Positions 7,962-43,127 of a stretch of DNA of 54,925 nt are shown here, one piece after another. The DNA comes from Methanosarcinaceae archaeon (GTDB lineage Archaea; Halobacteriota; Methanosarcinia; Methanosarcinales; Methanosarcinaceae). The stretch's first letter is position 1; every line of letters starts with the position of its first letter. Location: assembly GCA_030611265.1 (NCBI GenBank), contig JAUWQD010000014.1, forward strand, positions 1 to 54,925, given 5' to 3'. The notes under the pieces are model-generated. The model saw nothing but the letters and a program-made list of their open reading frames with translations, did no database searches and had not been told where the DNA came from. Position numbers and translations under genes: made by a program.

Positions 7962-7982
7962 GTTAAATTACTCTTTTTTAAG

Positions 7983-8394: not shown

Positions 8395-9171
8395 TCACTT
8401 TCTTTTTATGTTACTATAATACATACACTCATCACTTGAAAACAGCGGCATCTCGACCGCATCTTCTATCACTTCAACAGGCGCACCCCGAACAAGCACA
8501 CACGGCACTCCTTCTCCTGCTTCCCCCATCAATACCTGCGATGCTGAAACAAGATTATCCGCAACCGCCTTTTGTGTGACATGCAACGTCTTGCCGAAAA
8601 GGTCACATGACCCTCTCGCATCTTCAACCGGTACAATTCCCGACGTTCCAAGCGCGATCCCAACACAGCCGAGCCGCAGTGGCTGTGTTCGGCTGTCCCC
8701 GATAATCACCCCAACGCGGCAGGAATATCGTTTTTCAATACCAGCGCGTATGAGTGCTGCACTTTTTTGCGCATCCTCTGGAAGCAATACCACGCACCCT
8801 TCAGGTGCATTGGAACCATCGATCCCCGCATTAGGGGACAGGGTGCCGTTAGTGATAGTAAGTGCCGCGCCCGGAACGCCTCCGAAGACCTCGTCACATT
8901 CTTGCAGGATGAGTTCCATCTCCCGTGCATCAAGTTCGTACTTTTGTGCAAGTTCCTTTGCTTTTGCGGTTGGTGCAACGTCACAAAGTTGAACAACCCT
9001 TTTTTCCGCTGTAGCCACGGCAGATTCTGCAAGGACAAGTATGTCACCATCTTGCGGCATACATTCCCCATTCTCAAACGCATCCGAGAGGATTTCCACT
9101 ATGTCGTCACCAGCTTTTATGAGTGCAGTCCGTATTCCGAACATCTGCATAGAAGGAGACCCAGAATCCAT
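8395..9171 (-). CDS. cofE: Coenzyme F420-0:L-glutamate ligase
   Basis: The product is about 258 residues and matches CofE/FbiB-N: MFGIRTALIKAGDDI at the start, GDILVLAESAVATAEKR, then GIDGSNAPEGCVVLLP, then GVIIGDSRTQPLRLGCVGIALG and a C-terminal GVPCVLVRG. CofE adds glutamates to F420-0 using GTP, giving the poly-glutamylated hydride carrier of methanogenesis. It follows thiC in an operon. Candidate starts are ATG 9183 (overlapping the thiC stop by 11 bases), ATG 9171 (GGCGGT just upstream, chosen) and ATG 9150. Confidence 0.92.
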   Translation of the reverse strand: MDSGSPSMQMFGIRTALIKAGDDIVEILSDAFENGECMPQDGDILVLAESAVATAEKRVVQLCDVAPTAKAKELAQKYELDAREMELILQECDEVFGGVPGAALTITNGTLSPNAGIDGSNAPEGCVVLLPEDAQKSAALIRAGIEKRYSCRVGVIIGDSRTQPLRLGCVGIALGTSGIVPVEDARGSCDLFGKTLHVTQKAVADNLVSASQVLMGEAGEGVPCVLVRGAPVEVIEDAVEMPLFSSDECMYYSNIKRK

Positions 9172-9172
9172 A

Positions 9173-10420
9173 TCAACCGCCATTTGAGAGATAATCGCCC
9201 ATGATCTTGATGGCGCAGTATTCACCGCACATTGAGCATGGTCCTTCCACCGGGCACATATTCTTTGGTTTATCGGGATCTATCGCAAGTTCGACCTGAC
9301 CGTCCCAGTCAAACTTCGCACGCCTTTTCGCAAGCATCAGATCCCTGTCACTCAAGCCGTATTTGATGGAATCACCAATATGTGCCGCGACCTTGAATGC
9401 AATAAGTCCCTCTCTCACCTGTTCAGGTGAAGGAAGTGCCAGATGTTCCGATGGTGTGATATAGCACATATAATCCGCACCGGCACTGATTGCCATACTC
9501 GCACCCACCGCACCTGCGATATGGTCATAACCAAGCGCAATATCGGTAGGCAGAGGGCCTGCAACAAACAGCGGGAAATCGGACTTTGATTTGTAGAACT
9601 GTACGGATTCGGGAATATTGTTTGCCTGCACATGTCCGCCCATGCCTTCTATGATGACCTGCACCCCCTGTTCATTTGCATCCTTTGCAAGACGAACATT
9701 GGTATCGATCTCCATCTTCTGTGCACCATCGCAAAGATCATGAATACAACCGCTCCGCATGGTATTTCCAAGTGACAGCACAACATCGTTTTTCTTTAGT
9801 ATCCCGAGCACCTCGTCAAAATTTTCGACAAAAGGATTTTCGCATCCGTTCGACAACATATAGACACTCGTGAAAGAACCGCCCTTTGACACCATACCCA
9901 TCACACGCCCAGTGCCCCTTAATTTTTCAAGCATGCTCTTCTCCACACAATGGAGAACAACTGAACTTACTCCCTCGTTCACATGCTCTTTGAGATTTGA
10001 AAGTATATCATCCTCACTTACATCCTTCATGCCGTGCTCAACAATTGACTGGTAAATAGGAACTGTTGTGATTGGAAGTGTAGTGTTCTCAAATACCATC
10101 CTACGAATCTCGGAGATGTCCCCTCCCATCGAAAGATCGGTTATGGTATCTGCCCCGTATTTATCTGCGATCTTCACTTTTTCTATCTCAGCAAGGGGAT
10201 CGATCGATGCTGATGACGTGCCAAGATTGACATTGATCTTTGTGCTCACACCCTTTCCAATGGCAACAGGACGGCATCCATTCCGCACCATTATGACAAG
10301 ACTGCCGTTTGCGACATTCGACAGGACTGTATCTTCGTATATTCCTTCAGTCTTTACGACCTGTTCCATTTCAGAAGTGAGAGTTCCGTTTTTTGCGTGA
10401 TTGACTTGTGTAAATTTCAT
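9173..10420 (-). CDS. thiC: Phosphomethylpyrimidine synthase ThiC
   Basis: This 415-residue protein of the short ThiC class has GADTITDLSMGGD (about 88-100), LPITTVPIYQ, EGMGGHVQANNIPE (about 260-272), the AGPLPTDIALGYDHIAGAVG block and a C-terminal iron-sulfur motif CSMCGEYC. ThiC is a radical-SAM enzyme that converts aminoimidazole ribotide to HMP phosphate for thiamine. The cysteine motif reads CxxCxxxC, one residue shorter than the CxxCxxxxC of well-studied bacterial ThiC; I cannot tell whether that is normal for this archaeal group. Methanogens often carry two ThiC paralogues, so a lower-ligand or cobamide role cannot be excluded. No TPP riboswitch is evident upstream. Confidence 0.9.
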   Translation of the reverse strand: MKFTQVNHAKNGTLTSEMEQVVKTEGIYEDTVLSNVANGSLVIMVRNGCRPVAIGKGVSTKINVNLGTSSASIDPLAEIEKVKIADKYGADTITDLSMGGDISEIRRMVFENTTLPITTVPIYQSIVEHGMKDVSEDDILSNLKEHVNEGVSSVVLHCVEKSMLEKLRGTGRVMGMVSKGGSFTSVYMLSNGCENPFVENFDEVLGILKKNDVVLSLGNTMRSGCIHDLCDGAQKMEIDTNVRLAKDANEQGVQVIIEGMGGHVQANNIPESVQFYKSKSDFPLFVAGPLPTDIALGYDHIAGAVGASMAISAGADYMCYITPSEHLALPSPEQVREGLIAFKVAAHIGDSIKYGLSDRDLMLAKRRAKFDWDGQVELAIDPDKPKNMCPVEGPCSMCGEYCAIKIMGDYLSNGG

Positions 10421-23843: not shown

Positions 23844-25256
23844 TTATATGTAGTCATCAAGTGTGAGCAGCAAAAATCCTTCTTCTTTTGCCATCCTTTT
23901 CATCCCATCCGTAAATCCGGATTTGCTAATAATTGCAAAATAGTCTTTTCTATCAGGTAACCATTTCACAGATTTGGCTTTTTCTACAAGTTTTTCGTAA
24001 ACATCGATATCGATAGTCTTATTCTTCCATTTACATTCGAAAAAGAGAATTTCCTTTGTATCACTATTGATGGCGGCAATATCGATCTCATAATCATTGT
24101 GCCCTTTTGGAGCATGCGGGATCTTGCCCCACTGTCTGCCGAGTTTTTGGAATCTAAAAGGCAGTTTATCTTTTGAATTAAGATAGAGCAACATCTCTCT
24201 TCCGATCTGTTCAAATGTTTCTCCCAGATAGTTGTTATAGGCATTCTTCAAATCTTCGATCGCAGACTCTTTGTCTCCCTGTTCCAGTTCATCCTTATGC
24301 GATAATACGAAACGGAACCAAAAACGCAAAAACTCGTCATCGATTCTGTAGATGGTCTTTTTTGTGGTGGTTTTTTCTGTGATCGGATGTTCTTTTCTCA
24401 CAAACCCAAGTTGTATGAGTGTGTCCAGATAATATGTCAGATCTTTTGGTTCCAAAAATGATCTGGATGCTATCTCGCTCAACCTCACTGTGCCTTTTGA
24501 GATCGCAAACAGTATGTTCATATAAGTGGCAGGTTCCCTTAATTGTTCACGCAGCAGGAATTCTCCTTCTGCATAGAGCACTGATTCTTTTGCAAACAAT
24601 ATATTTTTTAGATTATCGTAAAAAGAATGTTCTTCATTAAAGAATGACAGGTAAAATGGTACTCCTCCTGCCGCTCCATATATGTTTACAATATCCTCTG
24701 ATGACAATTTCGGGAAGAACTCATGAATGTGTTTGAACAGCATCGGTTTTATCAGCATTTGCCCGGTTCTTCTTCCATACAGTGGACTTGAATACGCAAG
24801 CGTGCTTTTTTCCATCATTGATATGGATGAGCCGCACAATATGAGGTGGAATGGACCTCCCTTTATTATTTCATCAACAATAAGTTGGAATACCGAGGGA
24901 ATGGAATCATCTACTTGCGCCAGATATGAGAATTCATCTATGACAATTACAAGTTTCTCTTTTCCATTCCATCTTGTTTTGATGTACTCAAAGACCTGAT
25001 CGAATGTTTCCAGATTTGGCTCATAATCACCAAACAGGTCTGCTGCTCTTTTCCTGAACCTGTATAGATTCGACAACGTCCCTCTCTTGTCTGCCAGGAG
25101 GTATATGTGCGGCTTATCCATCTGGAATTTGTGTATCAGTTCGGTCTTGCCAACCCGTCGCCGCCCGTAGATGACGGTGAAAGACAATGCATCGGTTTGG
25201 TACTCGCGGTTTAATACTTCTAGTTCTTCTGTGCGGTTTATAAATTTTCGGATCAT
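23844..25256 (-). CDS. Archaeal AAA ATPase with DUF234 nuclease-like domain
   Basis: The 470-residue product has an N-terminal ATPase_2/AAA domain with INRTEELEVLN (about 6-16), Walker A YGRRRVGKTELIHKF and Walker B LVIVIDEFSYL. A middle helical and winged-helix region follows, then a C-terminal DUF234 domain with DYEIDIAAINSD and ILFFECKWKN, a D...E-x-K pattern typical of PD-(D/E)XK folds. Such ATPases are abundant in archaea, often near mobile DNA, and their role is unsettled. A 17-bp dyad, ATCATAATTATTATGAT, overlaps the start codon. It is divergent from the restriction-type operon. Confidence 0.85.
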   Translation of the reverse strand: MIRKFINRTEELEVLNREYQTDALSFTVIYGRRRVGKTELIHKFQMDKPHIYLLADKRGTLSNLYRFRKRAADLFGDYEPNLETFDQVFEYIKTRWNGKEKLVIVIDEFSYLAQVDDSIPSVFQLIVDEIIKGGPFHLILCGSSISMMEKSTLAYSSPLYGRRTGQMLIKPMLFKHIHEFFPKLSSEDIVNIYGAAGGVPFYLSFFNEEHSFYDNLKNILFAKESVLYAEGEFLLREQLREPATYMNILFAISKGTVRLSEIASRSFLEPKDLTYYLDTLIQLGFVRKEHPITEKTTTKKTIYRIDDEFLRFWFRFVLSHKDELEQGDKESAIEDLKNAYNNYLGETFEQIGREMLLYLNSKDKLPFRFQKLGRQWGKIPHAPKGHNDYEIDIAAINSDTKEILFFECKWKNKTIDIDVYEKLVEKAKSVKWLPDRKDYFAIISKSGFTDGMKRMAKEEGFLLLTLDDYI

Positions 25257-25549: not shown

Positions 25550-28500
25550 ATGACTACTGATTTAACATTTATCACAAACGAGGAAAACAACAAGTTGGTA
25601 GATAGGTTTGCTAAACTTATCAAAGATTCTCAATTTTTTGATTGTTTGGTGGGTTATTTCTACACAAGTGGTTTTCATTCATTATATGAGTCATTAGAAG
25701 AAACTGAAAAAATAAGAATATTAGTTGGTATTAGCACAAATAAGGAAACTTTTGATTTAATCCAAGAATCACAGAAACAAGTTCAAACAGAACTAAAATT
25801 GTCGCATAAAGAAACAAAAATCGAATTTTCCAACGAAGTTACAATGGAATTTGAAGAATCCGCTGACTCGATTGAAGTGGAAAGTGGCACAAAAAAATTC
25901 ATTGAATGGATTAAATCCGATAAATTGGAAATCCGAGTATATCCGGCCGAAAAGATACATTCGAAAGTCTATATCATGACTTTTAAGGAAGGAGATCGTG
26001 ATGCCGGAAGAGTGATTACCGGATCAAGTAATTTCACACAATCCGGATTAAGGAATAATCTGGAATTTAATGTTGAATTAAAGAATAGTTCTGATCACAA
26101 ATTTGCATTGGATCAATTCAATAAGTTATGGGAAAATTCGGTTGATGTTTCTGAAGAATATATTGAAACCATTGATACAAAGACATGGTTAAACGATAAA
26201 ATCACGCCTTATGAACTATATTTGAAATTCCTTTATGAATATCTTGAAGAAAAAATAAATCTGGATTTAGAGGATATAGATGATTTCTATAGTCCACCGA
26301 ATTTTATGGATTTGAAATATCAAAAAGATGCGGTTCAGGATGCAAAGGTAAAACTCTTGGAATACGGCGGAGTATTCATTTCTGATGTTGTAGGTCTGGG
26401 CAAGACGTATATTGCTACAATGTTGGCTCAACGATTAGACGGCAGAACACTGGTAATTGCGCCTCCTGTTTTAATTGATAGGGACAACCCCGGGTCATGG
26501 ACAAATGTTTTTGAAGATTTTGGAATTAAGCAGAGTTATATCGAATCTCGTGGGAAATTGGATGATATCATCAGAAGAATTACTGATACTGACAAAAATC
26601 AATATTACAAAAATGTAATTATTGATGAAGCACACAGTTTTAGGAATGAAGCGACTCAATCTTATGAAAAATTAGCTCAAATTTGCAGAGGAAAAAGAGT
26701 TATTTTAGTTTCTGCAACTCCTCTTAATAACACTCCACTTGATATTTTAAGCCAGATCAAATTGTTCCAAAATGCTAATAGATCGACACTTCCAAATCCA
26801 AAAGTAAAGGATTTAGAGAGATATTTCAATGGATTGCAAAGTCGATTAAAAGGGCTTGATAGAAAAGAAGACAAAGAAGAGTATCTTTCAGTTGTCAAGA
26901 ATAATGCGGAAGACATTCGTAAAAATGTTCTTTACCATTTGATGGTTAGACGTACCAGATATAGCATTACGGAATATTACGGTGATGATCTGAAAAAACA
27001 AAATTTAAAGTTCCCGGAAGTTGGAGACCCTGAACCAGTAATATACAACTTTAATGACGAACTTGATGTGATTTTTAATGATACTGTTGATATGATCGTT
27101 AATCAGTTCAAATATGCGAGGTACACTCCGATATTGTATCTCAAAAAAGAGCCTACAAGTACAGAAAAGACATCCCAACGAAACATGCAGGGTTTTATGA
27201 GGGTTTTGTTGCTAAAACGATTGGAGAGTAGTTTATTTGCGTTTAATAAATCGATATCAAGATTCATTAATTCTTATGAAAAATTCATTGAGCAATTCCA
27301 TAAAGGGAATGTGTATGTTAGTAAAAAACATATCAATAAGATTTTTGAGTATTTGGATGACGATAATGATGAATCGATCCAAAAATTGATCGATAACGAA
27401 AAAGCATCAAAATATGAGTCTGAAGATTTCATTGATGAATTTATTGAAGATCTGGAAACGGATCTGGAGGCTCTGAAAAACATTCAGACTTTATGGAGCA
27501 ATGTGAAAACCGATCCTAAACTTGAAAAATTCATCGAACTTTTGAAAACTGACACTGTTCTTAGTGAAAATAAGTTAATCGTTTTTACTGAATCAAAAGA
27601 AACTGCTCATTATCTTGAAGATATGTTAAACCCTGAATTTGACAACAAAGTAAGGGCTTACTCCAGTATATCATCTCCTGCTGATAGAATAGAGATCATC
27701 AATAATTTTGATGCAAAAGTGTCGAATAAAAAGGATGACATACGTATTCTAATTTCAACTGAGATCTTAGCGGAGGGTGTCAATTTACATCGTTCAAATG
27801 TGGTTATTAATTACGATATTCCATGGAATCCTACAAGAATGATGCAAAGGGTTGGACGTATCAATCGTGTGGATTCGAATTTTGATAAGATATATACGTA
27901 CAATTTCTTCCCGGCAGGACAAATCAATGAGAATATTAGTTTAGAAGAGGCAGCAGAAGCAAAGATCGAGGCATTTATAGAAATGCTCGGAAATGATGCA
28001 AAACTGTTGACTGATGAGGAAATAAAATCTCATGACTTGTTTAAGAGATTAACATCTAAAGAATACATTACCGGAGAAGATGAAGAGGATGATCCTGAAC
28101 TTCGTTACTTGACATACTTAAGGGATATCAGGGATGCCGATAAGGAATTGTTCAATAAGATCAAGAGAATTCCTAAGAAAGCAAGAACCGCGAAGAAATA
28201 CGATGAAGATCATACTTCCACTGTGACATTTCTCAGGAAAGGAAAGGTCAGGAAGGTCTTCAAAACTACAGGGAATGATTCGGGTATTTGCTCTGAAGAG
28301 ATTGATTTTAACACGGCTGCTGGGATCCTTGAGGCGGATATTGATACTAAACGGGAAAAGATCGAGCCGGAATTTTATAAGCACCTTGAGTTTAATAAGA
28401 AAGAGTTTGCAGATGTGTTCATTAAGGAATCCGAATTGCTTAAGCCAATTGGAAACCGGGGAAATAAAGCCAAGCTCATTAAATTGATCAGGGCGATAGA

Positions 28501-28762
28501 AAATAGTCCAGAATTTACCAGTGTAGAAAACGATTATATTGCAGATGTTATGAATCTCCTGCGAGATGGAAGTTTGCCGAAAGCGACAATAAAAAAGATA
28601 ATTGATGGGACAAAGGATGAAATTAATCCTTTTAAAATATATGCAAAAATCAAATCCGGCATTCCCGATCAATTTTTCCAGTCGGCTATTGTTACCAGTT
28701 CGGCTGATACAAGAGGAAAAAAAGAAGTGATTCTTTCAGAGTATCTACATAAAGGGGAATAA
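25550..28762 (+). CDS. PLD-domain SNF2-type helicase of a restriction-like operon
   Basis: The 1070-residue protein starts with a phospholipase-D-like nuclease domain: KIHSKVYIM (HxK at about 136) and VITGSSNFTQSGL (about 155-167). An SF2/SNF2 helicase core follows, with Walker A VVGLGKTYIA (about 279), DEAH-type IIDEAHSFRN (about 357), SATPLNNTP, and the C-terminal helicase motif QRVGRINRVD (about 765). PLD-helicase fusions act as restriction translocase-nucleases. The ATG at 25550 has AGGAAG upstream. The methylase gene begins two bases after the stop, so the genes form an operon. GC content is lower than in the housekeeping genes. Confidence 0.88.
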   Translation: MTTDLTFITNEENNKLVDRFAKLIKDSQFFDCLVGYFYTSGFHSLYESLEETEKIRILVGISTNKETFDLIQESQKQVQTELKLSHKETKIEFSNEVTMEFEESADSIEVESGTKKFIEWIKSDKLEIRVYPAEKIHSKVYIMTFKEGDRDAGRVITGSSNFTQSGLRNNLEFNVELKNSSDHKFALDQFNKLWENSVDVSEEYIETIDTKTWLNDKITPYELYLKFLYEYLEEKINLDLEDIDDFYSPPNFMDLKYQKDAVQDAKVKLLEYGGVFISDVVGLGKTYIATMLAQRLDGRTLVIAPPVLIDRDNPGSWTNVFEDFGIKQSYIESRGKLDDIIRRITDTDKNQYYKNVIIDEAHSFRNEATQSYEKLAQICRGKRVILVSATPLNNTPLDILSQIKLFQNANRSTLPNPKVKDLERYFNGLQSRLKGLDRKEDKEEYLSVVKNNAEDIRKNVLYHLMVRRTRYSITEYYGDDLKKQNLKFPEVGDPEPVIYNFNDELDVIFNDTVDMIVNQFKYARYTPILYLKKEPTSTEKTSQRNMQGFMRVLLLKRLESSLFAFNKSISRFINSYEKFIEQFHKGNVYVSKKHINKIFEYLDDDNDESIQKLIDNEKASKYESEDFIDEFIEDLETDLEALKNIQTLWSNVKTDPKLEKFIELLKTDTVLSENKLIVFTESKETAHYLEDMLNPEFDNKVRAYSSISSPADRIEIINNFDAKVSNKKDDIRILISTEILAEGVNLHRSNVVINYDIPWNPTRMMQRVGRINRVDSNFDKIYTYNFFPAGQINENISLEEAAEAKIEAFIEMLGNDAKLLTDEEIKSHDLFKRLTSKEYITGEDEEDDPELRYLTYLRDIRDADKELFNKIKRIPKKARTAKKYDEDHTSTVTFLRKGKVRKVFKTTGNDSGICSEEIDFNTAAGILEADIDTKREKIEPEFYKHLEFNKKEFADVFIKESELLKPIGNRGNKAKLIKLIRAIENSPEFTSVENDYIADVMNLLRDGSLPKATIKKIIDGTKDEINPFKIYAKIKSGIPDQFFQSAIVTSSADTRGKKEVILSEYLHKGE

Positions 28763-28764
28763 TT

Positions 28765-31700
28765 ATGGATCCACAAAACGCAAAAACGTTATTAGATGAT
28801 ACATTTAACAATGGTTATGATGAAGGTAAGTTTTTAAATTTTATCAATGAACTATTCAATGGATTTGATGCAAGTAAAAAAAAGTATCTTGTTCCTGATG
28901 CATATAAAGAATATATTGATTCTGACAATTATAAATCTCTGGGAGAGTATAAGGATGGTTCCGGGAAGTTAATTGATGTTCTTGCTATAAAGCTTAAGAA
29001 AAGTACTTCCAGAGATCGGGCAAGAACAATGCAGCGAAATTTGGTTGCAAAATACTTGTCTGAGAATAACAAACATGCGGCACTTGTAGCATTTTACGGT
29101 TACGATCCTGATGATTGGCGTTTTTCATTTGTCAAGTTGGATTATCGCCGTGAGAAAGACGATTCTGGAAGGGTTAAAACTGTTGAAGATTTGACACCTG
29201 CTAAAAGATATTCATTTTTGGTTGGTGTATATGAGCCGAATCATACTTGCAGGTCGCAATTCCTGAGACTCGTAGAAGAAGAGAATAAAAATCCTTCTTT
29301 TGAAGAAATTGAAACGGCATTTAGTATCGAAAAGGTTACAAAGATTTTCTTTGAAAAATACAAAGGATTATTCTTGGAATTAAAAGATGCTCTGGATGCT
29401 GCTATTGAAAAAGACCTGTATATCAAAGAGGATTTTGATAACAAGGACCTTTCCACTGTTGATTTTGCTAAAAAGTTACTTGGGCAGATCGTTTTTCTTT
29501 ATTTTCTTCAGAAAAAAGGCTGGCTGGGTGTTGAACGGGATAAAAATACGGGTAAGTTTAAGGAATGGGGCAGCGGTCCCAAAAATTTCCTTAAAAAACT
29601 GTTTAATAAAGAGATCGTTCAGTATGACAATTTCTTCAACGATGTGCTGGAACCTTTATTTTATGAAGCTTTAGCAAGGGAGCATGATGGTGATTATTAC
29701 AGCAGGTTCGAGTGCAAGATCCCATTCTTAAACGGTGGATTGTTTGAACCAATAAATGATTATAACTGGCAAGAGACTGATATTTTACTGGACAATACAA
29801 TTTTTGAAAAAATCATTGGCACATTTAATGAATTTAATTTCACAGTTAAGGAAGATGAACCATTAGAAAAGGAAGTCGCCGTTGACCCTGAGATGCTCGG
29901 AAAAGTTTTTGAGAACCTTCTTGATGTGAAGGACAGGAAATCTAAAGGGGCGTTCTACACACCAAGGGAAATTGTACACTATATGTGTCAACAGAGCCTT
30001 ATCAATTATCTTGAAACGAATACAAAGGATAAGAAAATATCAAGAGAAGACCTTGAAATGTTTATTCAATTCGGTGATTATTCAAGTTCAGCCGACCAGA
30101 GATATTTGATCGAGATCAATAAACTGCTACAGGATATAAGATCAGGAATATCGAAGAACGTAGTAAAGTCACAAGCACATGTACAGGATCGTATAAGCAA
30201 ACTGACGCTTCCAATTTCGATTATCTCAAACAAAGAATTGATTGATAGATTACTTGCAGATATTAAAGTCGTTGATCCTGCTGTGGGTTCAGGTGCTTTC
30301 CCTGTCGGAATGATGAACGAGATCGTAAAAGCGCGGTCTATTCTGACATTTTTTTGGTTTGATGACGCTAAATCCAGTGAACGAACAACTTACAATATAA
30401 AAAGGCAGACAATCCAGAATTGTCTTTATGGCGTTGATCTCGATTCATCGGCTGTTGATATTACGAAGTTGAGATTCTGGTTATCATTGATCGTTGATGA
30501 AGATGACATGGAACATATCCAACCACTCCCGAATTTAGATAATAAGATTATGTGCGGGAACAGCCTTCTCGAAGAGTTTGAAGGGATCAAATTGTTTGAT
30601 GAGAATATGCTTGGAGAACCAGTCATCGACCATAGTTTTGAGATCGAACAAATCGATTCAAAGATCGAGGGATTAAATCAGGAACTTAACAAGATCTATA
30701 CTGGAAAGACCACTGATGATGAAGATCCAAAACAGGTCAAGAAGCAAATCTTCAAACTTGAAAACGAAAAGAAGAAACTCTTGTCATCTCCAAAGGAAAA
30801 GACCCAGCAATTAAACTTGAGTGATGCAGATAATTTTAGAATAAAACAATCCCAGCGTAAATTAAGAGGACTAAGGGCACTGCAAAAGCAATTTTTCGAT
30901 GCCCAGAGCAAGAAAGATAAAATCAAATTACGAGATGATATTGATAATCTTGAATGGGAACTGATAGAAGAAACACTAAAAGAAAATGGAAACGAAGAAT
31001 CTATTCAGAAACTTCAGCAATACAAAAAGGCAAAATCAAAACCTTTCTTTTTGTGGAAGTTGTATTTTGCAGAAGTGTTCCAGAGAGAAAATCCAGGATT
31101 TGATGTTGTTATTGGAAATCCTCCTTATGTGAAAGAATACACCAATAGAAGTGCTTTTGATGGTTTAAGAAATTCTCCATATTATCAAGGTAAAATGGAT
31201 TTATGGTATTTCTTTGGGTGCATTGGGATTGACTTGCTTTGTGAAGATGGAATTGAATGTTACATCGCACCAAATAATTGGATTAGCAATGCTGGAGCAT
31301 TAAAATTTAGAAATAAAATTGTTGCTGAAAGTCAAATGTTATCATTTATTGATTTTGGAAATTACAAAGTATTTACCGCTGGAATTCAAACGATGGTATA
31401 CATAATCAAGAAAAATCATCAAATTAATAATTATAGTTTAACTTATTCGAAACTCCAAAGTGATGATATAAATTCCGATGCACTTTCTACGTTTTTGTAT
31501 AGAAAAGAGCCTTTAGATTACTTCTTGAAGTACAGTTCTGATTTCAAACGCGAGGATTTTGAGAATCGATATATCACATTTTACAGAAGGGAAATTGGAG
31601 CAGTATTATCAAAAATAAAGATGATGGGAGACACATATCTCAATAAATCCGAAACTGCTCAAGGAGTTGTAGCACCTCAGGATTCATTAAATAAAAAAAA

Positions 31701-32454
31701 TGCTGAAAAATTAGCCAATCAATATAAAGTTGGAGATGGTATTTTCATATTATCTGATAAAGAAAAAGCCAATATGGATTTTTATGAAAAAGAACTAGAA
31801 CTGATTAAACCTTATTATACAACAAATGAACTGCACAAATATTATGGAACTGCTAATAATCAATATTGGTTGATATACACTAAATCGGGTATAAATAGAA
31901 ACATCTCTAAATATCCGCATATAAAAGACCATCTTGAGAAGTTCAAGCCAATTATAACTTCTGATAATAAACCTTATGGATTGCATCGAGCAAGAAATGA
32001 GTACTTTTTCACAGGGGAAAGTATAGTTTCATTAAGAAAATGTTCAGAACCTACATTTACTTACTGCGATTTTGATTGTTATGTTTCTCAAACTTTCGTT
32101 GTCATAAAAACAGATAGAATCGATTTAAAGTATCTGACAGGAATTTTGAATTCACAACTAATTAAGTTTTGGCTTTATTATGAAGGTAAATTACAAGGGA
32201 ACAATTATCAAGTTGATTCAGAACCTTTAATGAATGTTCCGATAAAAGTAGGTTCAGATGTTGAAAATGAAATGGTAGTTGATCTTGTAGACCAAATCCT
32301 CGTCATCACAAAAAACCCAGATTACCTCGAAAACTCTGGCAAGCAAGCCAAAGTGAAAAACTTAGAAAAACAAATCGACCAGTTCGTCTACGAACTCTAC
32401 GATCTAACTCCCAAAGAGATAGAGATTGTTGGAAAATTCAATGGGGGGAAATAA
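28765..32454 (+). CDS. Eco57I-type N6-adenine DNA methyltransferase with TaqI-like specificity domain
   Basis: The 1229-residue protein has an N-terminal helical region, then the methylase core: FYTPREIVHYM (about 394), SAM-binding motif I VDPAVGSGAFPVGMMNEI (about 502) and catalytic motif IV VIGNPPYVKEY (NPPY at about 782). A C-terminal target-recognition region of TaqI_C type follows (about 950-1160, with SQTFVVIKT and a LNSQLIKFW-like helix). It should methylate adenine in host DNA and set the sequence specificity of the system. The ATG has AAGGGGA upstream inside the helicase gene end. Base composition drops inside the specificity region and recovers near 32280. Confidence 0.88.
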   Translation: MDPQNAKTLLDDTFNNGYDEGKFLNFINELFNGFDASKKKYLVPDAYKEYIDSDNYKSLGEYKDGSGKLIDVLAIKLKKSTSRDRARTMQRNLVAKYLSENNKHAALVAFYGYDPDDWRFSFVKLDYRREKDDSGRVKTVEDLTPAKRYSFLVGVYEPNHTCRSQFLRLVEEENKNPSFEEIETAFSIEKVTKIFFEKYKGLFLELKDALDAAIEKDLYIKEDFDNKDLSTVDFAKKLLGQIVFLYFLQKKGWLGVERDKNTGKFKEWGSGPKNFLKKLFNKEIVQYDNFFNDVLEPLFYEALAREHDGDYYSRFECKIPFLNGGLFEPINDYNWQETDILLDNTIFEKIIGTFNEFNFTVKEDEPLEKEVAVDPEMLGKVFENLLDVKDRKSKGAFYTPREIVHYMCQQSLINYLETNTKDKKISREDLEMFIQFGDYSSSADQRYLIEINKLLQDIRSGISKNVVKSQAHVQDRISKLTLPISIISNKELIDRLLADIKVVDPAVGSGAFPVGMMNEIVKARSILTFFWFDDAKSSERTTYNIKRQTIQNCLYGVDLDSSAVDITKLRFWLSLIVDEDDMEHIQPLPNLDNKIMCGNSLLEEFEGIKLFDENMLGEPVIDHSFEIEQIDSKIEGLNQELNKIYTGKTTDDEDPKQVKKQIFKLENEKKKLLSSPKEKTQQLNLSDADNFRIKQSQRKLRGLRALQKQFFDAQSKKDKIKLRDDIDNLEWELIEETLKENGNEESIQKLQQYKKAKSKPFFLWKLYFAEVFQRENPGFDVVIGNPPYVKEYTNRSAFDGLRNSPYYQGKMDLWYFFGCIGIDLLCEDGIECYIAPNNWISNAGALKFRNKIVAESQMLSFIDFGNYKVFTAGIQTMVYIIKKNHQINNYSLTYSKLQSDDINSDALSTFLYRKEPLDYFLKYSSDFKREDFENRYITFYRREIGAVLSKIKMMGDTYLNKSETAQGVVAPQDSLNKKNAEKLANQYKVGDGIFILSDKEKANMDFYEKELELIKPYYTTNELHKYYGTANNQYWLIYTKSGINRNISKYPHIKDHLEKFKPIITSDNKPYGLHRARNEYFFTGESIVSLRKCSEPTFTYCDFDCYVSQTFVVIKTDRIDLKYLTGILNSQLIKFWLYYEGKLQGNNYQVDSEPLMNVPIKVGSDVENEMVVDLVDQILVITKNPDYLENSGKQAKVKNLEKQIDQFVYELYDLTPKEIEIVGKFNGGK

Positions 32455-32455
32455 G

Positions 32456-34447
32456 ATGACAAAAACCAGATTTGATACGAAAGGAATAAAATCTGCTTTA
32501 AGCAAATTGCAATTCACGGAAAATAATTTTTATAAATCCATTACAGAGTTTATTTGGAATGGATTTGATGCAAAAGCTTCAATTGTTGAATTATCATATG
32601 AAATTTATCAAACTAATAAAGACGGAAAATTCAGGGAATTGGAAATCAAAGATAATGGTTCTGGAATTAACCAAAAAAGATTGGGAAAAACTTTTGAACC
32701 AATTTATGAATCCGAGAAAATCGGTGATAATGGTTTAGAAAAAAATCATTCCACAATTCATGGAAAAAACGGGGTCGGAAGATTAACCTTTTTCACATTT
32801 TCTAATTTTGCAAAATGGTACACAATATACAATGAAGATGGAATGAATTATAAGTGTGAAATTGAAATTGATGCAAATAAGCTAAATTTCTTCACAGGTG
32901 AGAACAAAACACTCGAACTGATAAATGAAAAAACGGGAACAACAGTTGTTTTTTCAAGGTTCTTTAGATTGAAGAATCCTAACATTGAAAATGATCTGTT
33001 AAATAACTTAAAAAATGAATTCGGTTGGTTTTTAGAATTAAATAAATCAAAAGGCTATCGTTTAATAATTAATGGTAAGGATTTAGATTATTCAGATATG
33101 TTGGAAGACCGTGAAATTTTTACAATAAACCACCAGAGTTCAGGAGAATCATTTAGAGTTGAATACATTAGATGGGCGGCAAAACTAAAGGGTGAGTACT
33201 CTCGATTTTATTATTTAGATGAAAAAAATAATGAGGTCTGGAAAGAATACACAAAATTAAATAAACAGAGAGATGATTTTTACCACAGTGTATATATTAA
33301 CAGTGAATATTTCAAGTATTTTAATTTCAGTTCTAAAGAAGATTCACCCTATAAAGGTTTAGGCGGTGGACGTTCAGATGAAATATTCAAATATTTATCA
33401 AACGAAATATACAAATTTCTCAAAAGCAAACGAAAACCGTTTTTAAAAAAACATTCCAAAAAAATAGTCGAAGAGTATAAAAAGGAAGGGGGTATAATTG
33501 TTGATGAAAAAGACCCTTTCGAATTGATACAGGCAGAAGAACTTGATAATGTTTTACAAGAAGTATATGTTATACAACCTAAATTTTTTGCACGTTCGAA
33601 TAATGAGCAAAAAAGGATTTTTATCGGTTTTTTAAAATTACTTTTAAAATCAGATGAGAGGGAGCAAGTTTTAAACATCATTGCCAGCATAACCGAATTG
33701 GATTCAAATGAAAGAAAAGAGTTAAGTGAAATTCTCAAAGTCACAAAATTGAACCGAATTATCAAAACCATTAATTTGATAAATGACAGATATAAAGCTG
33801 TCGAGATTTTAAAACAGCTTGTCTTTAACAAATCTTTGAAGGCAAATGAAAGGGACCATTTACAAAAAGTTGTTGAAGAAAATTATTGGCTCTTTGGAGA
33901 ACAATACCATTTGGTATCAAAAGATGAAGGTTTTCAAAAGGCGCTGGAGGAATATACTTATCTGTTAGATGGAGAGAAATCTAAACCAAAATTTACGGGA
34001 AATAATAAGACAAAAAGAATGGATATTTTCATGTGCCGGAAATGGAAAGGTGCTGAATCAATTAAAAATGTGATAATAGAACTTAAACGGCCAACTATAA
34101 TTCTTGGTTCGGAGGAACTTTCTCAAGTTCACGTATACAGAGAGACGATTTTAAATGAGCCGCGATTCAATTCTAACGTAGCAACATGGGATTTTATTTT
34201 AATTGGAAATCAGTTTGACAATTATATTGCAGACCAAATAGAAAATGCGAAGGTTCATGGAGAAAGAAGTCTGGTTTATAAAGTTAATAATTTTAAGATG
34301 TATGTAAAGAATTGGAGTGACGTTTTTGATGAATTTGATATTGCTCATGAATTCTTAAATAAAAAGTTGAAATTAGATAAGGAGAACGTGATTGGGGAGA
34401 TAGCTTCTGCTAAAGAGGGGATCAAATCATTAAAACAAAGAGACTAA
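32456..34447 (+). CDS. GHKL (MORC/MutL-like) ATPase with C-terminal PD-(D/E)XK nuclease-like domain
   Basis: The product is about 663 residues. The N-terminal half has the GHKL ATP-binding motifs: ITEFIWNGFDAKA (N-box, about 29-41), EIKDNGSGI (G1, about 62-70) and HGKNGVGRLTF (G2, about 101-111). The C-terminal region has VVEENYWLFGEQYHLV, then KRMDIFMCRKW and NVIIELKRPTI, a D...E-x-K nuclease pattern similar to Shedu/DUF4263 domains. MORC-like GHKL ATPases are known partners of prokaryotic restriction-modification operons. ATG 32456 is chosen because GGGGGGAAATAAG precedes it and it lies one base after the methylase stop. The gene is very AT-rich. Confidence 0.82.
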   Translation: MTKTRFDTKGIKSALSKLQFTENNFYKSITEFIWNGFDAKASIVELSYEIYQTNKDGKFRELEIKDNGSGINQKRLGKTFEPIYESEKIGDNGLEKNHSTIHGKNGVGRLTFFTFSNFAKWYTIYNEDGMNYKCEIEIDANKLNFFTGENKTLELINEKTGTTVVFSRFFRLKNPNIENDLLNNLKNEFGWFLELNKSKGYRLIINGKDLDYSDMLEDREIFTINHQSSGESFRVEYIRWAAKLKGEYSRFYYLDEKNNEVWKEYTKLNKQRDDFYHSVYINSEYFKYFNFSSKEDSPYKGLGGGRSDEIFKYLSNEIYKFLKSKRKPFLKKHSKKIVEEYKKEGGIIVDEKDPFELIQAEELDNVLQEVYVIQPKFFARSNNEQKRIFIGFLKLLLKSDEREQVLNIIASITELDSNERKELSEILKVTKLNRIIKTINLINDRYKAVEILKQLVFNKSLKANERDHLQKVVEENYWLFGEQYHLVSKDEGFQKALEEYTYLLDGEKSKPKFTGNNKTKRMDIFMCRKWKGAESIKNVIIELKRPTIILGSEELSQVHVYRETILNEPRFNSNVATWDFILIGNQFDNYIADQIENAKVHGERSLVYKVNNFKMYVKNWSDVFDEFDIAHEFLNKKLKLDKENVIGEIASAKEGIKSLKQRD

Positions 34448-34480
34448 TTTACTAAGAAAAATAACAAATCTTCGAAAAAT

Positions 34481-34538
34481 AATTATACCTGACCCCCGAA
34501 GAGATTAAAATTGTTGAGGAATTCAATGAGGAGAAATG
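34481..34538 (+). pseudogene. Relict 3' end of a second Eco57I-type methylase
   Basis: Just after the GHKL gene, a frame reads LY-LTPEEIKIVEEFNEEK followed by TGA. It closely parallels the extreme C-terminus of the intact methylase (LYDLTPKEIEIVGKFNGGK, stop at 32454). The DNA matches over about 50 bases with scattered differences. It is a fragment only, with no upstream methylase sequence. Confidence 0.7.
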
Positions 34539-34609
34539 AGAGCGTTAGTTAAAAAAGGATAATCGGGATTGATAAAAATAACGGAAATGATCAATTCGGA
34601 CGGGATGTA

Positions 34610-34665
34610 CCGGATTTACAGGATGCAACGCCGCATCGAAATCCGGTCCATACTGTAAATCCTGT
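34610..34665. repeat. GGATTTACAGGAT-type inverted repeat, copy 1
   Basis: Two nested inverted repeats are present: GGATTTACAG (34612-34621) with CTGTAAATCC (34653-34662), and ACCGGATTT (34610-34618) with AAATCCGGT (34639-34647). A related structure occurs at 41616-41668. Confidence 0.7.
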
Positions 34666-34721
34666 CAAATTATTGGCTGAATGTACAAACAAACTAAAAC
34701 CCAATTAAGGAGCCATAAATA

Positions 34722-34865
34722 ATGACAACAATAGAAATGGATGCTGAGAACGATAAAACCACCAAGAACTTTGACAGGTACAAGTTTACTAATGGTACGG
34801 TAAACGGAAGCGTTTACCTTCCAAAAGGTATCAGTAAGGTCAAGGTTACGATCGAATACGAATGA
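34722..34865 (+). CDS. 47-residue small protein
   Basis: ATG 34722 with AAGGAG nine bases upstream opens MTTIEMDAENDKTTKNFDRY, then KFTNGTVNGSVYLPKGIS and KVKVTIEYE. The second half predicts two to three beta strands (GSVYLP and KVKVTIEY), like short archaeal proteins found beside mobile DNA or toxin genes. Its function is unknown. It ends 11 bases before a second small gene with which it probably forms an operon. Confidence 0.65.
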   Translation: MTTIEMDAENDKTTKNFDRYKFTNGTVNGSVYLPKGISKVKVTIEYE

Positions 34866-34876
34866 GTGGGCGAAGG

Positions 34877-35023
34877 ATGTGCAAGTTGAAAAGTAATGTC
34901 TCAAAAAAACACTGCGCTGTTTGTAATTCAGTAGTAAATAGGGGTGAAGAGATGTATTTCAATCACAGGCTCATCCATCGAAAATATATTCAGATTGCAA
35001 TGGCTATATGGTATAAATTATGA
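34877..35023 (+). CDS. 48-residue small protein with a C2H2-type zinc-finger pattern
   Basis: ATG 34877 opens MCKLKSNVSKKHCAVCNS, then VVNRGEEMYFNHRLIHRKYI and a hydrophobic tail ending IWYKL. The spacing C-x2-C-x13-H-x3-H is close to a classical zinc finger (C-x2-C-x12-H-x3-H). The upstream GGGCGAAGG is a weak or closely spaced ribosome-binding site. It follows the 47-residue gene by 11 bases and precedes the Bro-N gene. Confidence 0.5.
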   Translation: MCKLKSNVSKKHCAVCNSVVNRGEEMYFNHRLIHRKYIQIAMAIWYKL

Positions 35024-35045
35024 CAGAGATGACAAAAATAACAAA

Positions 35046-35912
35046 ATGACGGAAAATCAGATGGATTCGGAAAAATCATTAATCGTCTTTCAGGACAAGA
35101 AAATAAGAAGAGTTTGGCATAATGAAGAATGGTTTTTTTCGGTTATAGATATAGCTGCAGTTCTGACTGAGCAAGATGATGCCCAAAAAGCAAGAAAGTA
35201 CTGGAATAAACTAAGCCAAAGGCTTAGAGAAGAGGGTAGCGAAGTGGTGACAAATTGTCACCGGTTGAAATTACCTGCTGAAGATGGCAAACTAAGAAAA
35301 ACTGACTGTGCGAACACAAAAACAATATTCAGGATAATCCAGTCGATCCCTTCCCCTAAAGCAGAACCATTCAAGCAATGGCTTGCAGAAGTAGGATATG
35401 AAAGAATACAGGAAATAGAAAATCCGGAACTTGCACAGGACAGGGTCAAGGATTATTACGAGCTTAAAGGATACCCTGCGGACTGGATTGAAAAGAGACT
35501 CAGGGGCATAGCAATCCGGCAGGATTTGACCTATGAATGGAAAAACAGGGACATTCAACAACAAAAAGACTTTGCGATACTTACAAATGAGATATCGAAA
35601 GCGACATTTGGCAAAACAGTAGGCGAATATAAAAAATTCAAAAACTTAAATAGAGACAACCAAAACCTTAGAGACCATATGACTGACTGGGAGTTAATCC
35701 TCACAATGGTTGGCGAAAAAGCAACAACAGACATCACAACATCAAAAGATTCACGGGGATTTAATGAATGCAAAGATTCTGCTCTTGAAGGTGGTGCTAT
35801 CGCAAAGAATACACGGAAAGAAATAGAGGAAAAAACTGGAAATACTATTGTTTCAAATGAGAATTATCTTCACTTAACTGAGAAGAAATTGAATAATCAA
35901 ATCAAAGATTAA
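35046..35912 (+). CDS. Bro-N domain (phage antirepressor-like) protein
   Basis: The product is about 288 residues. The N-terminal Bro-N domain (about 15-125) contains KKIRRVWHNEEWFFSVIDIAAVL (key residues W--EEW-FSV-DI--VL), then KARKYWNKLSQRL, TIFRIIQSIPSPKAEPFKQWLA (key residues R-IQSIPSPKAE-FK-WLA) and ERIQEIENPELA. The remaining, polar C-terminal region carries GYPADWIEKRLRGIAIRQDL. Bro-N proteins are found in viruses, prophages and plasmids and often act in DNA binding or antirepression. The start is uncertain among ATG 35046, ATG 35061 and a longer frame from 34944. Its presence marks this stretch as mobile-element-derived. Confidence 0.75.
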   Translation: MTENQMDSEKSLIVFQDKKIRRVWHNEEWFFSVIDIAAVLTEQDDAQKARKYWNKLSQRLREEGSEVVTNCHRLKLPAEDGKLRKTDCANTKTIFRIIQSIPSPKAEPFKQWLAEVGYERIQEIENPELAQDRVKDYYELKGYPADWIEKRLRGIAIRQDLTYEWKNRDIQQQKDFAILTNEISKATFGKTVGEYKKFKNLNRDNQNLRDHMTDWELILTMVGEKATTDITTSKDSRGFNECKDSALEGGAIAKNTRKEIEEKTGNTIVSNENYLHLTEKKLNNQIKD

Positions 35913-36004
35913 TCAATCGTAATCATAACCGGAAAGCGATATTAATCGGCTCGTCTACAAATTCTACAACCTGATTCCCTAATATCCCTAAATTGTCAGG
36001 GAAC

Positions 36005-40149: not shown

Positions 40150-41436
40150 CTATATCCCAAGCAGCCATTTCCAGAGTGGGTAGTACCGTATCATCAATCC
40201 ATCCGTTTCAATAATATTTTCGACATCCTCTGTGAGTATCATACCATCTGAAAGTCCAAACTCTTTGCATGCGTGGCAAAGTGAACGTTCTTCCCGCAGC
40301 CGTGTTTTTTTGTTTTTCACATCCCATGAGACCTGTATCAATGTTTGCACACCCTGACCGTTTTTTACCACAAAATCGACTTCAAATCCGTCTTTGCTTT
40401 TCCAGTAATATATCTCGTCAGAGCGCCTTTTGAGTTCGAGAAAAACTGCATTCTCGGCAAGTTTACCTATGTCTGATGTAAACCTGAATGAAACTTCATT
40501 TCGAAGTCCGGTATCGATGGCGTATGTTTTTTTGTTTTGCTTGAATTGACTCTTTAGTTTATACGAAAAAAGTGGCAGGTCCATTATCAGCAGGGATTCT
40601 TTGAGGTATCCGATGTATTTTTCGGCAGTCTCAACCGCCACATGTGAAGCTTTGGCAATGCTGTTAAATGAATATTCTCCTGTGGTATTTGTGAGCATCA
40701 ACTGGCATATCCTGCCTGTGACATCATAGGATGCACCAAACCTTGAGGTTATGTCCCTTGCAATTATGTCATTGTAGAGCATTGTCAATATTTTTTTGTG
40801 GTTGAACTTGTCTACGCCAGCAGATTCGGGAAACCCTCCTTCTTCAAGATAGGTATTTTGGTAATGCAGGAGTTTTTCCCTGTTGTAGATTAGATTATCA
40901 GGTTCAAGATTATCCCATCCCCTCAATTGGAGATATTCGGTAAATGATAGCGGCATTACTTCAAATGTGATGTGCCTGCCGGACAACACTCGACCGATGT
41001 CGTATGAGAGTAGACTTGCAGATGAGCCGGATAGGAATATCTGGGCAAATCGTTTGGTGTCGTAGAGCACCCTGACCCATTGTTCCCACCCATCCTTTTG
41101 CTGTATCTCATCAAGGAAAAGATGCGAGATATCGGGATTGATCTTGTAGATGTCAGTCAGGATCGTGTCCAGTGATGTAGCGTTGATCGTGGGGTCATCA
41201 AAGTTTAGGAACATGATGTTTTTTGGAGGGACACCGCTGTTTATGAGATGGTCTGCCACCTGATAGAGCACCGTGGTCTTACCCGAGCGCCTGACTCCGA
41301 TAACGTCTTTTATGTGCGCGGTTTCAAGTGTCTTTATGATGGAGTCTGTTACCTCTCGTTTTATTCCGGTAAGTTCATGTGGCACTTTTTTTTCTGCCCA
41401 CCATGGGTTCCACTGACGTATTGTTTGTTCAAGCAT
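40150..41436 (-). CDS. AAA_14/DUF4143 ATPase, paralogue 1
   Basis: The 428-residue product begins MLEQTIRQWNPWWAEKKVPH. It has Walker A IGVRRSGKTTVLYQV, Walker B HLFLDEIQQKDGWEQWV (key residues LDEIQ), sensor LSGSSASLLS, and EVMPLSFTEYLQL. A winged helix and a C-terminal DUF4143 region follow, with FLELKRRSDEIYYWKSKDGFEVDFVV (key residues YYWKS-DG-EVDFVV), a nuclease-like ExK/D pattern. This family is abundant in archaea and has no settled function. It is divergent from a paralogue at 41772. The inverted repeat AGCATATAT/ATATATGCT (41432-41440 and 41463-41471) covers its start codon. Confidence 0.85.
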   Translation of the reverse strand: MLEQTIRQWNPWWAEKKVPHELTGIKREVTDSIIKTLETAHIKDVIGVRRSGKTTVLYQVADHLINSGVPPKNIMFLNFDDPTINATSLDTILTDIYKINPDISHLFLDEIQQKDGWEQWVRVLYDTKRFAQIFLSGSSASLLSYDIGRVLSGRHITFEVMPLSFTEYLQLRGWDNLEPDNLIYNREKLLHYQNTYLEEGGFPESAGVDKFNHKKILTMLYNDIIARDITSRFGASYDVTGRICQLMLTNTTGEYSFNSIAKASHVAVETAEKYIGYLKESLLIMDLPLFSYKLKSQFKQNKKTYAIDTGLRNEVSFRFTSDIGKLAENAVFLELKRRSDEIYYWKSKDGFEVDFVVKNGQGVQTLIQVSWDVKNKKTRLREERSLCHACKEFGLSDGMILTEDVENIIETDGLMIRYYPLWKWLLGI

Positions 41437-41750: not shown

Positions 41751-41771
41751 CTAAAAAAGGTGCACATCAGC

Positions 41772-43127
41772 ATGGTATACGAACAAAGCATCATCGAGAG
41801 AAACCCGTGGTGGGTGACGGGGAAAGTGCCTGAAGTACTGCATGGCATTCGTCGCACAGAATATCTTGAAAAAATAGACGGGCGGCTCAAAGATCGGAAG
41901 ATACTTGCAGTGCTCGGAATTCGAAGGAGTGGTAAGTCTACACTTTTGTACCAGTCGATAAGCCAACTTCTGGCATCAGGTGTGAATTCTAAAAACATAT
42001 TTTACATCAATGCGGACGATTTGCGAAAACCTGCAAGAGAGAATCTTGAGCGTGCATTGGATTTTTGCCAGCAGAAGAACATGGTTTCGCTAAAAGACGA
42101 GAAGACTTATGTTTTCATTGATGAGATACAGAATGTCAGGGAATGGCAGTTGCTCTTGAAAAAGTATTATGACTTGAAATATGCCGCAAAATTTGTTGTA
42201 TCGGGGTCATCATCCAGCCTGATCTATAAGGATTCATCCGAAAGCCTTGTTGGAAGGATAGATTTCCTTGATGTATTTCCGCTCACTTTCAGGGAATTTC
42301 TGCAATTCAATAATGTAAGTGTGCCTGAAGTGAAACTTGACCTTCCATCATTAAAAGATGCATACTACGAACTTTCGTTGAAGCAGAACGAGATACTGGG
42401 TTATCTCGCACAGTATCTCAAAGTCGGAGGATTTCCCGAATGGTTTGAGGTAAAGAATGAAGAAAGGTGGTTTAAGATATTATCTGAGGAATACACGAGC
42501 CTACTTTTGTACAGGGATATTGTAAAGGCGTTCAACATACGTGACCCCCTTCTTCTTGAATCTCTTTTTAAGTTCGTAGCTTCTCATTCAGGAGAACGGT
42601 TCAGTTATCTTGGGATGGCAAAGGAAATAAGTGCCGATAAGGAAACCTCAAAACAATACCTGTATCATCTTGCCAATTCGCGTATGGTATACCTGTCAGG
42701 CTATTACACAAAAAGCAAAAAAGCGGCAGAGAGAAAGGAAAAGAAGATATATTTCTGTGATATCGGACTTAAAAACTCTTTTGTAAGGGAGCAGGATATA
42801 GGTTTTGATGCTGAAAATTCCGCATTCCTACATTGCATGAAAGGAGTTTCACAAGACCTGTTCGGAAAGGTGTTTTACTGGTTTGACAAAAACAGATATG
42901 AAACTGATATCATAATGAGTTGTAAATCAAAGGTAACGCCGATAGAAGTAAAATATAGGGAGAGGGAATCATTCGATGCAAGAGACCTCAAAGGTCTTGT
43001 AGGTTTTTGCAAGGAATTCGATAACAAGCATGCATTTGTTGTAACAAAATCAATGCTGGATGAGAAGAATATCGAAGATATTCGAGTTACGTTTGTTCCT
43101 CTCTGGTTATTTTTGCTTGCGTTCTGA
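41772..43127 (+). CDS. AAA_14/DUF4143 ATPase, paralogue 2
   Basis: The product is about 451 residues, beginning MVYEQSIIERNPWWVTGKVP, with Walker A LGIRRSGKSTLLYQS, Walker B YVFIDEIQNVREWQ, sensor VSGSSSSLI and the DVFPLTFREFLQF motif. Its C-terminal DUF4143 part has FYWFDKNRYETDIIM and VTPIEVKYRERESFD, a D...E-x-K nuclease-like pattern. The NPWW-KVP N-terminus is shared with the divergent paralogue at 40150. I chose ATG 41772; GTG 41760 is possible. The gene is followed at once by a convergent housekeeping gene. Confidence 0.85.
   Translation: MVYEQSIIERNPWWVTGKVPEVLHGIRRTEYLEKIDGRLKDRKILAVLGIRRSGKSTLLYQSISQLLASGVNSKNIFYINADDLRKPARENLERALDFCQQKNMVSLKDEKTYVFIDEIQNVREWQLLLKKYYDLKYAAKFVVSGSSSSLIYKDSSESLVGRIDFLDVFPLTFREFLQFNNVSVPEVKLDLPSLKDAYYELSLKQNEILGYLAQYLKVGGFPEWFEVKNEERWFKILSEEYTSLLLYRDIVKAFNIRDPLLLESLFKFVASHSGERFSYLGMAKEISADKETSKQYLYHLANSRMVYLSGYYTKSKKAAERKEKKIYFCDIGLKNSFVREQDIGFDAENSAFLHCMKGVSQDLFGKVFYWFDKNRYETDIIMSCKSKVTPIEVKYRERESFDARDLKGLVGFCKEFDNKHAFVVTKSMLDEKNIEDIRVTFVPLWLFLLAF

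What the first reader, a model, noticed from the sequence alone, without database searches (positions are those of the whole stretch)
25550..34447. Three-gene restriction-type operon with a MORC-like GHKL ATPase-nuclease
A PLD-SNF2 helicase, an Eco57I-type methylase with its own specificity domain and a GHKL ATPase carrying a Shedu-like D...ExK domain are tightly coupled. MORC-type ATPases in restriction operons are described, but the combination with a second candidate nuclease domain and two nucleases in total (PLD and ExK) is uncommon. Whether it acts by classical restriction or abortive infection cannot be told from sequence.
Basis: partly seen in the sequence, partly recalled or inferred. 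Interest (0 to 1): 0.65.

Follow-up and report, generated by a model that had tools for sequence, protein, structure and literature searches.

The report
Restriction system plus inserted Shedu-type nuclease
In a methanogen-family archaeon, a known type of two-gene DNA restriction system has a separate, single-gene antiviral ATPase-nuclease spliced in directly behind it, so the apparent three-gene system is two neighbouring defences rather than one new machine.

Summary
The three genes are real, intact and almost touching (gaps of 2 and 1 bp): a PLD-SNF2 helicase-nuclease, an Eco57I/type IIG-like adenine methylase with a TaqI_C specificity region, and a GHKL ATPase with a C-terminal Shedu-like D..ExK nuclease.

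They do not form a conserved three-gene system. The PLD-SNF2 + methylase pair recurs without the GHKL gene; in G018 and G045 the methylase runs directly into a BRO-N gene. GHKL homologues mostly stand alone: in an 80-locus scan none lies beside this pair, and six sit behind a type I hsdR. In a same-genus genome (G183), the end of a relic methylase continues directly into sequence that, in the window, lies beyond the GHKL gene; the window carries a second methylase 3'-end copy there. The GHKL gene therefore looks imported with a piece of methylase tail.

Most likely there are two independent defences: (1) an ATP-dependent restriction-modification pair whose methylase sets specificity; (2) a GHKL-type Shedu (paraMORC3), like V. 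cholerae VcSduA, which protects alone and without abortive infection. Both kinds are known.

Side observation: the ~75-bp methylase 3' tail recurs in many related archaeal genomes, usually directly before defence-associated accessory genes.

The parts
25550..28762 (+). PLD-SNF2 restriction subunit (1070 aa): single HKD-type half (H137-S-K139 ... GSSN 158-161) followed by SNF2 helicase (GLGKT, DEAH, SATP, QRVGR)
   Evidence: Pfam PLDc_2, SNF2-rel_dom, Helicase_C; motifs intact and conserved in four orthologues
28765..32454 (+). Type IIG-like adenine methylase with fused specificity region (1229 aa): motif I DPAVGSGAF, motif IV NPPY, TaqI_C domain
   Evidence: Pfam Eco57I 2.2e-34 and TaqI_C 6.4e-8; PADLOC REase_MTase_IIG 4.7e-194; no conserved D..ExK in residues 1-250
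31165..32364 (+). Hypervariable target-recognition region of the methylase (residues about 801-1200)
   Evidence: 14-40% identity to orthologues, against 41-81% per block over residues 101-800 in the close orthologues and 50-69% in the last 29 residues
32290..34486 (+). Segment inferred to be imported: last ~165 bp of the methylase gene plus the whole GHKL gene
   Evidence: Identity to the same-genus relic G183 is 88-100% up to ~32295, then 68-82% to 32455; G183 lacks 32457-34486
32456..34447 (+). GHKL ATPase-Shedu nuclease (paraMORC3 / GHKL-SduA), 663 aa from ATG 32456
   Evidence: HATPase_c_3 7.5e-12; N, G1 and G2 box residues invariant in 79 sequences, E31 in 77; AF2 pLDDT 82, Foldseek to Hsp90, Topo II, MutL, MORC3
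33848..34369 (+). Shedu-like PD-(D/E)xK nuclease domain (residues ~465-638; D523, E542, K544, Q557)
32404..32456 (+). Direct repeat copy 1: true 3' end of the methylase gene
   Evidence: the repeat finder D1
34489..34541 (+). Direct repeat copy 2: orphan methylase 3'-end relic (LTPEEIKIVEEFNEEK*), 77% to copy 1
   Evidence: continues into 34540-34937, the whole stretch 86.5% identical to G183
34944..35912 (+). BRO-N gene (PADLOC PDC-S13), the kind of gene that directly follows the methylase in relatives G018 and G045
   Evidence: Pfam Bro-N, PDC-S13 8.1e-116
35949..36001 (+). Third, decayed copy of the methylase 3' tail, after the BRO gene

Best explanation
Two independent defence modules sit back to back. 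Module 1 (25550-32454) is a two-gene ATP-dependent restriction-modification system. The methylase protein reads and methylates an adenine in a site chosen by its hypervariable C-terminal region; at unmethylated sites it engages the PLD-SNF2 protein, which uses ATP to move on DNA and cuts with its metal-independent PLD site. Module 2 (32456-34447) is a single-protein GHKL-type Shedu: ATP binding closes the GHKL dimer as a clamp on invading DNA and licenses the C-terminal D..ExK nuclease. Module 2 was brought in with a piece of a related methylase's 3' end by recombination in the conserved methylase tail, between the methylase and a BRO gene. Shown here: gene structure, intact motifs, absence of the third gene beside relatives of the pair, empty site in the same genus, flanking repeats. 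Inferred: complex formation, translocation, cleavage, clamp action, mode of import. No activity was tested.
For: PLD-SNF2 + methylase pairs without GHKL in G045, G017, G087, G026, G093, G046 (some contigs end inside the locus), G327 and G417, and on plasmids of Lactococcus and Microcystis; methylase followed directly by BRO in G018 and G045. Same-genus G183: relic methylase end (= window 31976-32456, 89.8%) runs directly into the sequence at window 34487-34937 (86.5%); G183 has no GHKL homologue. Identity to G183 drops at ~32290. 53-bp repeats flank the GHKL gene. GHKL homologues: single genes in four order relatives and mostly so in 80 GTDB loci, none with an adjacent pair. Specificity region 14-40% identical while the PLD-SNF2 partner stays at 36-90% per block. 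VcSduA works alone, needs E27 and K557 and preserves host viability (PMC12137116). The pair was already noted on Lactococcus pLd8 (PMC6098607).
Against: The 1-bp methylase-GHKL spacing, with a G-rich ribosome-binding-like stretch inside the methylase tail, would allow co-translation. GHKL homologues directly follow hsdR in 6 of 80 loci and precede hsdS in some, so an RM-linked role recurs. The contig comes from a fragmented assembly (108 contigs) and contigs often break at the tail repeat, so a chimeric join near 32290 cannot be excluded without reads. G183's assembly is incomplete.
Confidence: 0.78

Rival explanations
1. One three-protein restriction system: methylase gives specificity, PLD-SNF2 and GHKL-Shedu act together as helicase, clamp and two nucleases.
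For: Near-touching genes on one strand; recurrent placement of GHKL-Shedu inside type I operons; Iyer 2008 (PMC2292703) argues MORC/paraMORC act with SFII helicases and nucleases in RM systems.
Against: Relatives of the pair without GHKL, GHKL homologues without the pair, empty site in the same genus; VcSduA defends alone.
Confidence: 0.1
2. GHKL-Shedu is a backup guarding the RM pair: it acts when RM is inhibited or bypassed, explaining repeated recruitment behind R or M genes.
For: Recurrent RM neighbourhoods across unrelated RM types; accessory genes are typical of these loci.
Against: Most GHKL homologues have no RM neighbour; simple clustering in defence islands explains the rest.
Confidence: 0.15
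3. The methylase-GHKL junction is an assembly artefact created at repeated methylase tails.
For: Several contigs end at or near the tail repeat (e.g. G000:C36 ends on it); identity to G183 changes within homologous sequence.
Against: Both ORFs stay open across the junction; the 34487 side continues 450 bp in agreement with G183; copy 1 and copy 2 are only 77% alike, so they share no long identical word.
Confidence: 0.07
4. Loss rather than gain: the ancestral locus had the GHKL gene, and G183 lost it by recombination between the tail copies.
For: Recombination between flanking tails would leave the same empty site.
Against: G018 and G045, in other families, also run methylase to BRO directly; the identity drop over 32296-32455 marks imported sequence.
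Confidence: 0.1

Closest known systems
VcSduA, GHKL-type (type I-D) Shedu / paraMORC3 (PMC12137116; PMC2292703)
   Same: N-terminal GHKL ATPase, middle region, C-terminal D..ExK DUF4263-like nuclease in one protein; usually a stand-alone gene
   Different: Here it lies 1 bp behind a methylase gene; the window protein itself gives no Pfam or PADLOC SduA hit and is linked only through the family profile; no activity tested; VcSduA was not aligned directly
PLD-SNF2 + type IIG-like methylase pair of Lactococcus plasmid pLd8 orf33/orf34 (PMC6098607)
   Same: PLD, SNF2 and helicase_C in one protein; Eco57I-type methylase with pfam12950 specificity domain and no nuclease domain found
   Different: Archaeal host; BRO and GHKL-Shedu cargo downstream
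DISARM class 1 (DrmD + DrmMI + PLD DrmC)
   Same: SNF2 helicase resembling DrmD (140 bits, cut-off 610), Eco57I-like methylase, PLD nuclease
   Different: PLD fused to the helicase; no drmA or drmB found beside it
Type I operons with GHKL-Shedu behind hsdR (L085, L086, L088, L096)
   Same: GHKL-Shedu embedded with almost no gap behind the restriction subunit of an RM operon
   Different: Type I HsdR/M/S instead of PLD-SNF2 + fused methylase and specificity

Membership tests
Shedu type I-D (GHKL-SduA) / paraMORC3 | GHKL ATPase motifs with catalytic Glu | tested here: met
   E31, N35, D38, D66-G68-G70, G103/G106/G108; fold matches Hsp90, Topo II, MutL, MORC3
Shedu type I-D (GHKL-SduA) / paraMORC3 | C-terminal PD-(D/E)xK nuclease of the SduA_C/DUF4263 kind | tested here: met
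   D523, E542xK544, Q557 in 79/79; hhalign probability 90, E 1.5e-6; PF14082 hits 3/40 and PADLOC SduA 10/40 family members. The window protein alone gives no SduA hit
Shedu type I-D (GHKL-SduA) / paraMORC3 | Protects against phage as a single gene | not testable with these tools
   Shown for VcSduA; homologues here are mostly stand-alone
MORC (proper) | S5-domain motif GhXhhpXXRh | tested here: not met
   0 of 40 family members
Type IIG restriction-modification | Methylase and specificity domain fused | tested here: met
   Eco57I + TaqI_C, PADLOC type IIG model 4.7e-194
Type IIG restriction-modification | Nuclease domain in the same protein | tested here: inconclusive
   No conserved D..ExK in residues 1-250; AF2 model gives no confident PDB match, best E 7e-3. 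No nuclease supported
PLD-SNF2 + IIG-like methylase pair | PLD-SNF2 subunit encoded directly beside the methylase | tested here: met
   2-bp gap; same pair in many relatives and plasmids
DISARM | Core drmA, drmB, drmC | tested here: not met
   None of the ten flanking proteins scanned with PADLOC was drmA/B/C; only cross-hits of the helicase and methylase to Drm models, far below NCBIfam cut-offs
BREX | PglZ and BrxC beside PglX | tested here: not met
   No BREX component among the ten flanking proteins scanned; PglX cross-hit 72.5 bits against cut-off 500

The most novel reading that the evidence does not exclude
The conserved 3' end of this methylase gene works as a docking site for accessory defence genes in Methanosarcinales: a ~75-bp coding tail is carried as a repeat at the front of mobile gene cassettes (BRO, DinD-like, RhuM, Fic, Schlafen-AlbA, HepT/MNT, YhcG, GHKL-Shedu), supplies the ribosome-binding site, and lets cassettes pile up behind restriction genes by recombination at the tail.
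Probability: 0.25. Interest if true: 0.62.

Novelty: new member of a known kind. Interest (0 to 1): 0.4.

Why it matters
It separates what is one system from what is neighbourhood: operon-like spacing alone would have produced a spurious three-gene, two-nuclease system. It documents a GHKL-Shedu in an archaeal genome placed directly behind an RM operon, with a same-genus empty site, and points to the methylase 3' end as a place where accessory defence genes are swapped. If the tail-cassette idea holds, it would explain how unrelated accessory genes keep arriving behind restriction genes.

Tried and rejected
A viral-contig scan with the GHKL protein gave no relative. PADLOC found no family for the window GHKL protein. 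A direct PDB sequence search with the GHKL protein gave only a histidine kinase at E 0.84. The idea that the methylase carries a third nuclease at its N-terminus was tested by alignment, AF2 and Foldseek and not supported. MORC proper was rejected on the S5 motif. A tail-like repeat beside GHKL homologues elsewhere was sought and not found, so the donor locus is unknown. Sigma-70 and terminator scans gave only chance-level matches and suit bacteria, not archaea.

Full report
Observation. The window is a whole contig (G000:C3) of a 2.86-Mb assembly. Gaps are 2 bp and 1 bp. The 673-aa figure comes from an in-frame TTG inside the methylase gene.

What the proteins are. P0001 has PLDc_2 at 52-194 and SNF2/Helicase_C, with one HxK..GSSN half-site and all tested SNF2 motifs intact and conserved in orthologues. 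P0002 is an Eco57I-type methylase with a TaqI_C specificity region, closest to PADLOC type IIG. Its N-terminal 250 residues carry no conserved D..ExK across seven sequences and give no confident PDB fold match, so a nuclease in the methylase is not supported. P0003 is a GHKL ATPase with a C-terminal D..ExK domain. In 79 sequences D523, E542, K544 and Q557 never vary, nor do N35, D38, D66, G68, G70, G103, G106 and G108; E31 is kept in 77. The model (pLDDT 82) matches Hsp90, topoisomerase II, MutL and MORC3 over the ATPase. The C-terminal profile aligns with SduA_C-containing relatives from the same class at hhalign probability 90, E 1.5e-6, pairing the D and ExK columns. The MORC S5 motif is absent from all 40 tested. 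This is the paraMORC3 arrangement of Iyer et al. 2008 (PMC2292703), today a GHKL-type Shedu; VcSduA needs both its ATPase Glu and nuclease Lys and restricts phage while preserving host viability (PMC12137116).

One system or two. Relatives of the first two genes were fetched from the class and phylum. The PLD-SNF2 + methylase pair recurs without a GHKL gene; several contigs end within the locus, so not every one shows both flanks. In G018 and G045, whose methylase 3' ends are intact, the next gene is a BRO-N gene overlapping the methylase end. A BRO gene of the same kind lies in the window at 34944-35912, beyond the GHKL gene (81% identical DNA to the G018 copy over 674 bp); it is PADLOC candidate PDC-S13. 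More distant pairs carry other cargo between or beside them: Schlafen-AlbA in Prevotella, nucleotidyltransferase and SLATT in Microcystis, and a spare specificity cassette with a DNA invertase in Lactococcus pJM1F. The pair was described on Lactococcus pLd8 (PMC6098607).

Conversely, GHKL homologues in order relatives are single genes. The GTDB scan returned 80 loci; none has the pair as neighbour. Six sit directly behind a type I hsdR (L085, L086, L088, L096, L116, L121), with an hsdS confirmed next in L085 and L096. RM proximity recurs, but the partner differs.

The empty site. In same-genus genome G183 a relic of the operon survives: PLD-SNF2 residues 1-430 fused in frame to methylase residues 1044-1226. 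Its methylase end, matching window 31976-32456, continues directly into the sequence that lies at 34487-34937 in the window. The window holds two copies of the methylase 3' end, at 32404-32456 and 34489-34541, 77% alike. Identity between window and G183 is 88-100% to ~32295, falls to 68-82% over 32296-32455, and is about 87% after 34487. The simplest reading is import of a unit of methylase 3' end plus GHKL gene at about 32290-34486. G183 has no GHKL homologue. Caveats: both genomes are draft assemblies, contigs often end at tail repeats, and reads were not available.

How it probably works. Along the methylase, close orthologues are conserved over residues 101-800 (41-81% per block), fall to 14-40% over residues 801-1200, and recover in the last 29 residues (50-69%). 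That is the pattern expected when the methylase carries the sequence specificity and the restriction subunit follows it. I infer methylase-guided, ATP-dependent cleavage by the PLD site. For the GHKL protein I infer ATP-dependent clamp closure on DNA followed by D..ExK cleavage, by analogy with VcSduA. None of this was assayed.

The tail. A 78-bp probe from the methylase 3' end found copies in 27 of 238 class genomes (the weakest are probably chance), with at most three scored per genome. In the fetched stretches there are 55 copies; nearly all lack an in-frame methylase upstream, and by my count about 35 directly precede a BRO, DinD-like, RhuM, Fic, Schlafen-AlbA, HepT/nucleotidyltransferase, YhcG or (in the window) GHKL gene. 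Orphan copies differ mainly at third codon positions (186/828 against 63/829 and 61/826), so they diverged as coding sequence before being cut off. Upstream homology mostly stops within about 30 bp of the probe start. This fits repeated recombination at the tail, or simple relics of decayed methylase genes; I cannot separate the two.

Verdict. Real genes, correctly described domains, composite origin. Both modules belong to known kinds.

Noticed in passing
window 32377-32452, 34487-34539, 35949-36001; L154-L179, L034: A ~75-bp methylase 3' tail recurs as direct repeats, often several within a few kb, mostly just upstream of BRO, DinD-like, RhuM, Fic, Schlafen-AlbA, HepT/MNT or YhcG genes in related archaeal genomes; contigs often end at these repeats.
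   Followed up: partly
L035 (G183:C49) 466-2274, - strand: In-frame fusion relic: PLD-SNF2 residues 1-430 joined to methylase residues 1044-1226 by an internal deletion of about 5.1 kb, with ~10 bp overlap at the join.
   Followed up: partly
L032 (G045:C42) about 4422-4645: The methylase N-terminus (about residues 1-152) is out of frame with the rest in G045, so that copy is frameshifted or misread.
   Followed up: no
L193 (Lactococcus cremoris pJM1F) 1728-10230: PLD-SNF2 + methylase pair followed by an inverted spare TaqI_C specificity cassette and a Mpi-type invertase: a likely phase-variable version of the same RM pair.
   Followed up: no
window 23844-25256, 40150-41436, 41760-43127: Three genes near the locus match PADLOC phage-defence candidates PDC-S27 (a DUF234 ATPase) and PDC-S01 (two), so the region looks like a defence island.
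   Followed up: no
window 34722-34865: A 47-codon ORF (MTTIEMDAENDKTTKNFDRYKFTNGTVNGSVYLPKGISKVKVTIEYE), nearly identical in protein in G183, with no Pfam match.
   Followed up: no
L085, L086, L088, L096: GHKL-Shedu embedded directly behind type I hsdR, in two cases followed by hsdS, with almost no gap to hsdR.
   Followed up: partly
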